Source: Chitinophaga pinensis (GTDB lineage: Bacteria > Bacteroidota > Bacteroidia > Flavobacteriales_D > Crocinitomicaceae). From it: DNA of 64,000 nt. Made by a program: the position numbers and the translations under genes. Below are positions 12,360 through 13,292 of this stretch, one piece after another; position 1 is the first letter of the stretch; every line of letters starts with the position of its first letter. Location of the stretch: contig CAMDNE010000008.1 of the NCBI GenBank assembly GCA_945902745.1, positions 1 to 64,000 of the forward strand, read 5' to 3'. Below the pieces are notes generated by a model. That model had not been told where the DNA came from. It did not search any database and was given only the letters and a program-made list of their open reading frames with translations.

Positions 12360-12540
12360 AGGCTCATAATTCTGTGAAGCTATAATGATGAATTGTGGAT
12401 TATAACCCACAACATTCCCGCCTAAAGTCGGGACGCTCTGAATAAAAAAAAGCCTCACATTTCTGTGAAGCTTTCTGAGTGGGTTCCGATTGAAATCGGA
12501 ATAACCGCCGACATTCCCGACTGAAGTCGGGACGCTCTGA
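12360..12540 (-). repeat. Distal part of the tRNA-Val 3'-half array (two units)
   Basis: Read on the minus strand, this is the far end of the array that begins at tRNA-Val, separated from the rest by the GIY-YIG gene. The proximal unit has the 18-nt hairpin 12515-12532 in place of the anticodon arm and a related hairpin 12484-12501 in place of the T-arm, then the terminator-like stem-loop 12444-12472. The distal unit is degenerate. Its hairpin (12416-12433) has one stem mismatch, a T-arm-like stem TGTGG/CCACA follows, and a decayed terminator copy (12360-12381) ends it. Bases 12290-12360 show no gene I can support. Confidence 0.8.
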
Positions 12541-12546
12541 ATAATT

Positions 12547-12792
12547 TTATTGATTTTCAATAAGGTTTCGTATCATTTTTCGAGATTTCCATTTTTTTAT
12601 TTCCTTCTCATGTGACATTGCTTCGGTTCTTGTAACAAATGATTTTTGATAAACAATTACCCAATCATTAGCTTGATTTGTAAAACCTTTGTTTTTGTTG
12701 TTATGTTTTTGAAGTCTTTCTTGAATATTTGAAGTCTGGCCGATATAATATTTATCAGCAAATTCAGAAAAGAGAATATAAGTGTGGAACAT
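12547..12792 (-). CDS. Single-domain GIY-YIG nuclease family protein
   Basis: The protein has 81 residues, about the whole GIY-YIG core. Tyr5-Ile-Leu replaces the GIY motif and YYIG (15-18) is the YIG motif. The catalytic-type Arg26 and His30 lie in the following helix. EAMSHEKEIKKWKSRK (about 57-72) supplies the conserved Glu and a basic C-terminus. Small stand-alone members (UPF0213/YhbQ-like) are common in Bacteroidota, but their substrates are mostly unknown. The gene is embedded in the tRNA-Val 3'-half array, in the same direction as the tRNA. A degenerate copy of the tRNA 3' half and the 18-nt hairpin (12869-12886) lie in its leader. This could be a structure-specific nuclease acting on the array, but that is inference. 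Confidence 0.88.
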   Translation of the reverse strand: MFHTYILFSEFADKYYIGQTSNIQERLQKHNNKNKGFTNQANDWVIVYQKSFVTRTEAMSHEKEIKKWKSRKMIRNLIENQ

Positions 12793-12805
12793 AAAAAAAA
12801 GTAAA

Positions 12806-13180
12806 GATGCTTAAACATAAAGTTACTCTTTTAGCTGGAAATGAGGGCTCCTGAATTTCCGCCACTATTCCCGCCTAAAGTCGGGACGCTCTGAATAAAA
12901 AAAGCCTCACATTTCTGTGAAGCTTTTGGTGGGTTCCGATTGAAATCGGAAGAACCGCCTACATTCCCGACTGAAGTCGGGACGCTCTAAACAAAAAAAA
13001 GCCTCACATTTCTGTGAAGCTTTCTGAGTGGGTTCCGATTGAAATCGGAATAACCGCCGACATTCCCGACTGAAGTCGGGACGCTCTGAATAAAAAAAAG
13101 CCTCACATTTCTGTGAAGCTTTTAGTGGGGAATGACGGATTCGAACCGCCGACATTCCCGACTGAAGTCGGGACGCTCTG
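12806..13180 (-). repeat. Tandem tRNA-Val 3'-half/terminator units with hairpin-replaced anticodon arm
   Basis: Immediately after tRNA-Val and its terminator, minus-strand units restart at TTCAGAGCG (tRNA nt about 20-28). They then carry TCCCGACTTCAGTCGGGA where the tRNA has its anticodon arm, continue as ATGTCGGCGG, and end with another copy of the terminator. The hairpin copies are at 13156-13173, 13064-13081, 12965-12982 and, with one mismatch, 12869-12886. In the unit nearest the tRNA (13126-13180) the T-arm and acceptor 3' strand are intact. In the next two, the T-arm is replaced by a related hairpin (13033-13050 and 12934-12951). The unit next to the GIY-YIG gene is degenerate. Spacing between CGCTCTG marks is 91, 92, 99 and 96 bp. 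No open reading frame here looks genuine. Confidence 0.9.
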
Positions 13181-13183
13181 AAT

Positions 13184-13212
13184 AAAAAAAAGCCTCACAT
13201 TTCTGTGAAGCT
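13184..13212 (-). terminator. Intrinsic terminator of tRNA-Val
   Basis: On the minus strand a 9-bp stem (AGCTTCACA/TGTGAGGCT, one G-U pair) closes a GAAA tetraloop and is followed by seven or more T. Near-identical copies end the array units at 13092-13120, 12993-13021, 12897-12924 and 12444-12472. Confidence 0.85.
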
Positions 13213-13217
13213 TTTAG

Positions 13218-13292
13218 TGGGGAATGACGGATTCGAACCGCCGACATCCTGCTTGTAAGGCAGGCGCTCTGAACCAACTGAGCTAATCCCCC
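13218..13292 (-). tRNA. tRNA-Val (anticodon UAC)
   Basis: The minus strand folds into a complete 75-nt cloverleaf: acceptor GGGGGAT/ATTCCCC, a D-arm GCTC/GAGC, anticodon arm CCTGC-CTTACAA-GCAGG, and T-arm GGCGG-TTCGAAT-CCGTC, with discriminator A73. Anticodon TAC reads GUA and related valine codons. CCA is not encoded. A well-formed promoter lies upstream and an intrinsic terminator follows at once. Tandem partial copies of the 3' half follow downstream. Confidence 0.97.

What the first reader, a model, noticed from the sequence alone, without database searches (positions are those of the whole stretch)
12360..13292. tRNA-Val followed by tandem 3'-half copies whose anticodon arm is replaced by a palindromic hairpin, with a GIY-YIG gene inside
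After tRNA-Val(UAC) and its terminator, the 3' half of the tRNA plus the same terminator recurs about six times. In each copy the anticodon arm is swapped for TCCCGACTTCAGTCGGGA or a slightly mutated form. In three copies the T-arm is also swapped, for a related hairpin. A single-domain GIY-YIG nuclease gene lies in the array, in the same direction. Ordinary tRNA duplication or phage integration does not make such a pattern. It looks like an element that grows by copying a tRNA end together with a hairpin, possibly with the nuclease acting on those structures. I have a general impression that small GIY-YIG genes and tRNA-like repeats co-occur in other Bacteroidota, but cannot verify it here.
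Basis: partly seen in the sequence, partly recalled or inferred. Interest (0 to 1): 0.75.

Follow-up and report, generated by a model that had tools for sequence, protein, structure and literature searches.

The report
tRNA-invading nuclease elements with hairpin scars
Next to a tRNA gene sits a tiny gene for a likely DNA-cutting enzyme, with broken copies of that tRNA in which one arm is swapped for a hairpin; the same arrangement recurs at tRNA genes in many Bacteroidota and looks like a selfish element that invades tRNA genes while leaving one working copy.

Summary
On the minus strand, tRNA-Val(UAC) is followed by six hairpins, each in place of the anticodon arm of a tRNA-end copy, six terminator copies (one degenerate), three T-arm hairpins and an 81-aa GIY-YIG gene. 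It is not a one-off. Of 159 loci found by protein similarity (recognised duplicates removed), 125 have a hairpin-free tRNA gene within 1 kb and 151 have a tRNA call or tRNA-like sequence; a control nuclease family gives 1 of 29. Nuclease lineage goes with the tRNA, the site in it and the hairpin type. One tRNA-Val gene carries either of two lineages at two sites. Orthologous empty and filled sites exist. ORFs are under purifying selection. Best explanation: a chromosomal homing-type element that targets tRNA genes and brings a replacement tRNA end, comparable with fungal mitochondrial mORFs and phage SegB. The hairpin marks the disrupted copy; its function is inferred. The intact tRNA is identical in filled and empty alleles, so how it escapes cutting is unsolved. 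No cleavage was tested. New variant of a known kind.

The parts
13217..13292 (-). intact tRNA-Val, anticodon TAC (UAC)
   Evidence: ARAGORN
13184..13212 (-). terminator copy 1, directly after the intact tRNA
   Evidence: repeat family D3; sequence
13156..13173 (-). hairpin 1 TCCCGACTTCAGTCGGGA in place of the anticodon arm
13125..13155 (-). pseudo-tRNA 1: 3' half with intact T-arm
   Evidence: read; 100% match to tRNA positions 46 onward
13092..13120 (-). terminator copy 2
13064..13081 (-). hairpin 2, exact
13022..13063 (-). pseudo-tRNA 2: 3' half, T-arm replaced by hairpin 13033-13050
12993..13021 (-). terminator copy 3
12965..12982 (-). hairpin 3, exact
12925..12964 (-). pseudo-tRNA 3: 3' half, T-arm replaced by hairpin 12934-12951
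12896..12924 (-). terminator copy 4
12869..12886 (-). hairpin 4, mutated form TCCCGACTTTAGGCGGGA
12547..12792 (-). GIY-YIG nuclease gene, 81 aa, ATG start
   Evidence: PF01541 E 1.3e-15
12515..12532 (-). hairpin 5, exact, just after the ORF and the D-arm remnant TTCAGAGCG
12473..12514 (-). pseudo-tRNA 5: 3' half, T-arm replaced by hairpin 12484-12501
12444..12472 (-). terminator copy 5
12416..12433 (-). hairpin 6, mutated form
12353..12415 (-). degenerate pseudo-tRNA 6 and degenerate terminator copy 6 (12353-12381)

Best explanation
This is a chromosomal homing-type element whose target is a tRNA gene. The GIY-YIG nuclease cuts the tRNA gene at one lineage-specific place (here the anticodon arm). 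Repair from an element-bearing copy brings in a replacement tRNA end with its terminator, the nuclease gene and the hairpin. The result is one intact tRNA, then the nuclease, then the displaced host tRNA end with the hairpin at the cut place. At the Leu locus the mirror form is seen, with the 5' end displaced. Because an intact target is regenerated, further events at the same tRNA and recombination between units build tandem arrays, and old units decay into ORF-less hairpin copies like those in the window. Shown by sequence: the arrangement, the link of site and hairpin to lineage, insertion polymorphism, selection on the ORF, polarity of decay. Inferred: cutting of the tRNA gene, repair-driven copying, and that the hairpin is the non-cleavable form of the target site.
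For: (1) Association: 125 of 159 loci have a hairpin-free tRNA of a named isotype within 1 kb; with any ARAGORN of 159, 131 same strand; HNH control 1 of 29. (2) Specificity: on a tree of 162 ORFs, one per locus (148 different sequences), the tRNA type needs 26 changes against a shuffled mean of 65, minimum 60 of 300 shuffles. (3) The hairpin sits at usual tRNA coordinates per lineage: Val 29-45, Asn 33-43, fMet 38-47, Asp 39-50, Phe 55-56, Ala 20-25 (one locus), eMet and Val-2 at 55/56, with small shifts at some loci. Members of the Val-rich clade found at Arg(TCT) or eMet have a TCCCG-type hairpin at the anticodon arm. (4) In one genus the tRNA-Val gene carries the anticodon lineage in 3 loci, a T-loop lineage with another hairpin in 2, a truncated ORF in 1, none in 4, and a 5' copy with another GIY-YIG gene in 1, of 11 loci read out of 20 returned. 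(5) Empty and filled orthologues: L110 v L112, about 350 bp extra between flanks 90-91% identical, with a 58-bp overlap duplication. In the window's genus, folC-linked tRNA-Val: full-length ORF match in 5 loci (two, G137 and G063, with an in-frame stop), truncated in 1, none in 8. (6) In G096 the proximal terminator is of the type seen at 6 of 7 loci of that genus with a GIY-YIG ORF downstream and at 0 of 4 without, while the distal one differs (by eye). (7) dN/dS median 0.17 over 43 non-independent pairs; Y, Y-x-G, R, H, E, K invariant in 17 members. (8) With two or more ORFs after an intact tRNA, the proximal is longer in 13, the distal in 1, tie 15 (2 of the 13 end at a contig end). (9) Precedents: mORFs (PMC3630166, passages) and SegB, which cuts within tRNA genes in vitro and is needed for tandem amplification (PMC13096335, passages and section 10).
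Against: No cleavage, transfer or expression was tested. The intact tRNA of a filled allele is identical to that of an empty one (window v L103, L112 v L110, L292 v L296, L299 and L300), so no sequence-based self-protection is visible; classical homing needs one. The protein is a bare catalytic domain with no DNA-binding domain, so the source of specificity is unknown. The hairpin arms change in a compensatory way, which mere blocking of a site does not require. Sites are not strictly fixed per isotype: a second Asn lineage (L054, L062) has its hairpin elsewhere and Leu(CAA) has both D-loop and anticodon-arm forms. The Val clade looks roughly grouped by host family (by eye), so long-distance spread is not evident. 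At many loci read, proximal and distal terminators are alike, which fits tandem duplication as well as transfer. Not every relative is tRNA-linked: 8 of 159 loci show neither a tRNA call nor tRNA-like sequence, and in the window's own genome 3 of 6 PF01541 matches lie at no tRNA (L001, L003, L004). No vehicle: 0 hits in 50,697 phage records, 1 weak hit in plasmids, 2 loci in IMG/VR.
Confidence: 0.6

Rival explanations
1. Toxin and decoy: the GIY-YIG protein attacks the tRNA itself, and the hairpin-bearing pseudo-tRNA is transcribed as an RNA decoy or antitoxin in which the cut place is replaced, similar in logic to type III toxin-antitoxin systems.
For: Isotype-matched nuclease and tRNA; several decoy-like units per nuclease gene in the window; ORF-less hairpin copies at L102 and L103; the arms of the hairpin change in a compensatory way.
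Against: 3' units such as those of the window lack the 5' half, so they cannot fold as a tRNA. T-arms are destroyed as well in several. Pairing shows no RNA-strand bias: G-T type 12 cells v C-A type 14, few cells. GIY-YIG enzymes nearest in structure act on DNA (structures; function recalled).
Confidence: 0.12
2. Passive repeats: ordinary tandem duplication of tRNA ends plus insertion of dispersed REP-like palindromes; the nuclease is a bystander.
For: TCCCGAT..ATCGGGA palindromes are dispersed in some genomes, 20-22 copies in G003, G004, G059, partly with 4-5 bp flanking repeats (by eye). Tandem ORF copies are often near-identical.
Against: The hairpin core of the window occurs nowhere else in its genome. 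Hairpin type and tRNA site go with the nuclease lineage. The ORF is under purifying selection. The control nuclease family shows no association.
Confidence: 0.1
3. Host-serving amplifier: the nuclease is kept because it raises tRNA copy number or protects tRNA loci, for example against tRNA-cutting defence or against integrases that use tRNA genes.
For: SegB in phage T6 amplifies a tRNA gene to overcome a tRNA-cutting defence (PMC13096335). Extra full tRNA copies occur in L027, L185 and L202. Purifying selection.
Against: The extra copies at the loci read in detail are mostly dead pseudo-tRNAs. Patchy presence and decayed ORFs fit a parasite better.
Confidence: 0.1

Closest known systems
mORF elements of fungal mitochondria (Allomyces atp6; Glomus atp6, atp9, cox2, nad3)
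   Same: A nuclease ORF with a carried-in gene end that completes the host gene, and the native end displaced downstream (PMC3630166, passages).
   Different: Target is a protein gene and the nuclease in the Glomus atp6 case is LAGLIDADG; the carried ends there are only 64-81% identical to the relative's native ends. Here the target is a bacterial tRNA gene, the carried end has the same sequence, and a hairpin marks the displaced copy.
SegB of T-even phages
   Same: Free-standing GIY-YIG homing endonuclease beside tRNA genes, with cut sites within tRNA genes in vitro, needed for tandem amplification, with short homology between the tRNA 5' end and the segB 3' end (PMC13096335, passages and section 10). 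Its motif RAWTSGAAC, read on the other strand, fits the tRNA T-loop (my reading), where one lineage here inserts.
   Different: Phage-borne, and reported there without preference for isotype. Here chromosomal, lineages tied to isotype and site, with hairpin-substituted pseudo-tRNAs; the main text of that paper holds neither 'hairpin' nor 'palindrom'.
UPF0213 / SLX1-type GIY-YIG domains
   Same: Nearest solved folds: 1zg2 (UPF0213, BH0048), SLX1, then more weakly the I-TevI catalytic domain and UvrC.
   Different: I did not look into tRNA-gene association of UPF0213 or SLX1 proteins.
Repetitive hairpin-forming and double-hairpin elements of mitochondrial DNA
   Same: Repetitive, possibly mobile hairpins and double hairpins, also within rRNA genes (PMC2800124, passages).
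   Different: The word endonuclease does not occur in that text; hairpins here are tied to one place in one tRNA and to a nuclease lineage.

Membership tests
GIY-YIG nuclease superfamily | catalytic motif with conserved Y, Y-x-G, R, H and E | tested here: met
   PF01541 E 1.3e-15; invariant Y5, Y16, G18, R26, H30, E62 in 17 diverse members; model pLDDT 88.8 with GIY-YIG structures as best hits
free-standing homing endonuclease | present/absent polymorphism at a fixed site in related genomes | tested here: met
   L110 v L112; two genera surveyed
free-standing homing endonuclease | cuts the element-free allele | not testable with these tools
   needs a cleavage assay
free-standing homing endonuclease | element-bearing allele protected by a changed target | tested here: not met
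   intact tRNA identical in filled and empty alleles (window v L103, L112 v L110, L292 v L296); only the displaced copy is changed
mORF-type element (carried-in gene end) | nuclease ORF lies between an intact gene and a displaced end copy | tested here: met
   read at many loci
mORF-type element (carried-in gene end) | carried end differs from the displaced native end | tested here: inconclusive
   the terminators differ in G096 and at L033 and L036; alike at many other loci read
REP / RAYT palindromes | hairpin dispersed in the genome | tested here: not met
   window hairpin core only at this locus; a related palindrome is dispersed in some other genomes
tyrosine-integrase island at a tRNA gene | integrase gene inside the duplicated tRNA ends | tested here: not met
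   the ORF list and Pfam scan show a GIY-YIG gene in the array; the other ORFs there overlap the repeats and are short
type III toxin-antitoxin | toxin is an RNase inhibited by transcribed repeat RNA | not testable with these tools
   no expression data; no G-U bias in the hairpin arms, few cells

The most novel reading that the evidence does not exclude
The hairpin plus the adjoining tRNA piece is a guide. The 80-aa nuclease has no DNA-binding domain, and directly beside its ORF (in some loci overlapping the stop codon) lies a conserved-stem hairpin joined to a stretch identical or nearly so to the target tRNA gene. This is the layout of TnpB or IscB with its guide RNA (recalled). If the hairpin RNA or folded DNA binds the enzyme and the tRNA piece pairs with the target, this would be a guided GIY-YIG nuclease that homes into tRNA genes.
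Probability: 0.07. Interest if true: 0.95.

Novelty: new variant of a known kind. Interest (0 to 1): 0.8.

Why it matters
It would be a phylum-wide class of selfish elements living in tRNA genes of bacterial chromosomes, a natural case of cutting a vital gene and supplying the replacement. It gives ready natural sets (same tRNA gene, two nuclease lineages, two sites, empty relatives) to test how a bare GIY-YIG domain finds its site and how the donor escapes it, a question that the SegB paper also calls open. It may also explain some tRNA calls with odd anticodons and contig ends at tRNA genes in Bacteroidota assemblies (seen at several loci).

Tried and rejected
Genome-wide dispersal of the window hairpin: none. 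Rfam on L011, L133 and L142 at gathering level: in L011 only the tRNA. NCBIfam and PHROGs: no family for the window protein; the Leu-type protein has a weak, below-cutoff TIGR01453 hit. Phage or plasmid vehicle: none in phages, one weak hit in the plasmid set (a 4.9-Mb Aeromonas record), 2 loci in IMG/VR. A conserved alignment over all tRNA types was too diverse to search with, so the wide scan used the Val type only (A2) and is biased to it. Literature: ten searches listed no paper that by title or abstract start describes this arrangement in bacteria; I opened passages of three papers only (PMC3630166, PMC2800124, PMC13096335). Only openly licensed PMC papers were searched, no preprints. The best-hairpin scan often picked the terminator instead, so its 63 of 113 with a YYC[CG] start is a lower bound. 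sought arms within 2 mismatches of TCCCGA/TCGGGA, and includes some chance hairpins without real tRNA context; 8 of its 9 pair-5 changes are the Asp-type hairpins, one lineage. ARAGORN calls include pseudo-tRNAs named Stop, ??? and the like, hence the stricter count.

Full report
Observation. The window (contig C8 of a 3.46-Mb genome) holds one tRNA gene, tRNA-Val(TAC), on the minus strand. After it come terminator copies and tRNA-end copies in each of which the anticodon arm is TCCCGACTTCAGTCGGGA (4 exact) or TCCCGACTTTAGGCGGGA (2). Three copies also have TTCCGATTTCAATCGGAA in the T-arm. Neighbouring units are 92-99 nt apart and start inside the D-arm (TTCAGAGCG, once TTTAGAGCG). An 81-aa GIY-YIG gene lies in the array. 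Shuffled sequence gives essentially none of this.

A second, mirrored locus in the same genome. PF01541 has six matches in the genome. Two of them, L005 and L006, are tandem units upstream of tRNA-Leu(CAA). Each has the region before the tRNA and the tRNA 5' half with TCCCGATGCATCGGGA in the D-loop, followed by GIY-YIG coding sequence; the upstream unit's ORF lacks its start region. So the duplicated half can be the 3' or the 5' one, and the hairpin lies inside the pseudo-tRNA on the side of the ORF. The other three matches (L001, L003, L004) lie at no tRNA.

Family and phylum survey. The protein finds matches in 110 of 150 genomes of the family, the own one included. I read 90 loci from the top of that list (30 given; 60 regions fetched down to about E 1e-10, one listed place, G055:C325, left out): 115 ORFs, 85 within 1 kb of an ARAGORN call. 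A scan of species genomes with the Val-type alignment kept the best 80 of at least 445 confirmed stretches; record titles name Flavobacteriaceae, Sphingobacteriaceae genera, Chitinophagaceae, Cyclobacteriaceae and Bacteroidales, and four name other phyla (Glaciecola, Kuenenia, Gracilibacteria, Actinomyces), three of which carry loci identical in protein to family loci. From titles of such identical loci (L186, L187) I infer that the window's family is Crocinitomicaceae. Of these 80 plus 2 IMG/VR loci, 72 have an ARAGORN call within 1 kb, 71 on the same strand, 52 named Val(TAC). After removing 13 recognised duplicates: 159 loci, 132 with an ARAGORN call within 1 kb, 131 same strand, 19 more with tRNA-like sequence within 400 bp, 8 with neither. 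With only hairpin-free tRNAs of a named isotype: 125 of 159. Of the 8, L063 and L084 show the fMet-type hairpin by eye, and L085 does not look tRNA-linked. Control: HNH genes in the same family of bacteria, 1 of 29 loci with a tRNA, and 1 of 29 with tRNA-like sequence.

Site and hairpin go with the nuclease lineage. Aligning pseudo-tRNAs with their intact tRNA shows usual positions per type, with small shifts at some loci: Val 29-45, Leu(CAA) about 28-44, Asn 33-43, fMet 38-47, Asp 39-50, Ala 20-25 (one locus), Phe 55-56, and insertion at 55/56 of a double hairpin for an eMet and Val lineage. Exceptions: Asn loci L054 and L062, apart from the other Asn loci in the tree, have the hairpin elsewhere, and Leu(CAA) also has a D-loop form. 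The tree of 162 ORFs groups by tRNA type far beyond shuffles (26 changes v mean 65, minimum 60; few columns, so many forks are open). Members of the Val-rich clade at Arg(TCT) or eMet keep the anticodon-arm place and a TCCCG hairpin. Phe and fMet lineages, joined with support 92 (with two eMet rows), have TCCG[TC]C-type hairpins at the loci read. In one genus the tRNA-Val gene carries the anticodon-arm lineage (L292, L294, L298) or the T-loop lineage (L295, L297). This is the strongest sign that site and hairpin are properties of the element.

Hairpin. Across the phylum the Val form is GAGC[AG]-TCCCGA(N)-loop-(N')TCGGGA-GGGTC, usually with loops of about 3-8 nt. Among 178 unique hairpins in tRNA-like context, 152 pair perfectly over 6 bp, and 28 pair changes are compensatory, mainly C-G to T-A at pair 2 (11) and G-C to C-G at pair 5 (9, nearly all Asp type). 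Non-standard cells are balanced between G-T type (12) and C-A type (14), so there is no hint of RNA-strand selection; palindromic or cruciform DNA is as good a reading. In several Val loci the ORF stop codon lies in the hairpin loop (read).

Mobility and decay. L110 (empty) and L112 (filled) are orthologous: flanks 91.4% and 90.5% identical, about 350 bp extra, 58-bp overlap duplication. At folC-linked tRNA-Val loci of the window's genus: full-length ORF match in L101, L104, L106, L107, L112 (those of G137 and G063 with one in-frame stop), truncated in L114, none in L102, L103, L108, L110, L111, L113, L115, L126; L118 and L125, cut at the tRNA by a contig end, were not scored. L103, which has the same neighbours as the window locus, has no 3' array and no ORF but has a 5' pseudo-tRNA with the same kind of hairpin. 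In the second genus, 11 of 20 returned loci were read (the rest are weaker matches): the proximal terminator of the type GCCTTGCAA..TTGCAAGGC is at 6 of 7 loci with a GIY-YIG ORF or truncated ORF downstream (not at L302, another GIY-YIG gene) and at 0 of 4 without, and in G096 the distal terminator is different (by eye). Where two or more ORFs follow an intact tRNA, the proximal is longer in 13, the distal in 1, with 15 ties (L206 and L078 are contig-end cases). Some ORFs carry stops. Selection on intact ones is purifying: median dN/dS 0.17 in 43 non-independent pairs.

Protein. The AlphaFold2 model (pLDDT 88.8) is a bare GIY-YIG domain; nearest solved structures are UPF0213 BH0048, SLX1 and, more weakly, the I-TevI catalytic domain and UvrC. 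Y5, S9, Y16, G18, R26, H30, W44, E62, K66 are invariant in 17 members from ten tRNA contexts.

Mechanism. The arrangement intact tRNA - terminator - nuclease - hairpin - displaced tRNA end is that of fungal mitochondrial mORFs, where the element brings a gene end and displaces the native one (PMC3630166, passages seen). SegB, a free-standing GIY-YIG enzyme of T-even phages, has cut sites within tRNA genes in vitro and is needed for tandem amplification of a tRNA-segB unit, with microhomology between the tRNA 5' end and the segB 3' end (PMC13096335, passages and section 10). Here the ORF end likewise often carries tRNA D-arm sequence. I therefore favour homing into tRNA genes with a carried-in replacement end, followed by tandem growth. 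The hairpin is then the altered target site in the displaced copy. The open problem is that the regenerated tRNA is unchanged; the SegB paper raises the same question and points to inefficient cutting of donor alleles.

Novelty. Ten searches of the open PMC set listed nothing on this in bacterial chromosomes, judged from titles and abstract starts. The parts resemble known kinds, while the tRNA target with a regenerated end, the lineage-specific hairpin and the phylum-wide spread are new to me. I rate it a new variant of a known kind.

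Noticed in passing
L005:2100-2708 (own genome, contig C7): An ORF that reads like a REP-associated (Y1) transposase lies directly downstream of the tRNA-Leu with the mirrored array; named from memory, not tested.
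   Followed up: no
L161-L180 (genomes G059, G003): TCCCGATAGCTATCGGGA is dispersed in intergenic DNA, several copies flanked by 4-5 bp direct repeats (TACG, CGTA, CACGA, TCAAT, ATTGA; by eye): perhaps an 18-bp mobile palindrome related to the tRNA hairpins.
   Followed up: partly
L133:932-2919 (genome G043): 23S rRNA gene in which several helices are capped by TCCCGA..TCGGGA-type hairpins, within an otherwise normal LSU match.
   Followed up: partly
L102, L113, L126: ORFs that look like phage-type integrases follow tRNA-Val in genomes of the window's genus that lack the GIY-YIG gene there; by eye only.
   Followed up: no
L028, L202, L232, L231, L203: ARAGORN names some hairpin pseudo-tRNAs tRNA-Stop(tta), Cys(gca) or Ile(tat); such calls in Bacteroidota annotations may be artefacts of these elements.
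   Followed up: partly
L184, L193, L227: Records titled Glaciecola, Kuenenia and Actinomyces carry loci identical in protein to loci of the window's family; titles or bins are probably wrong.
   Followed up: no
L111, L119, L017, L022: Tandem arrays of the tRNA-Val 3' end starting at the T-loop with spacers of very roughly 100-150 nt, without their own ORF: another array type at the same gene.
   Followed up: no
L001:1200-1450: A GIY-YIG gene of the same genome not near a tRNA lies beside TTCGACAAGCTCA-type repeats.
   Followed up: no
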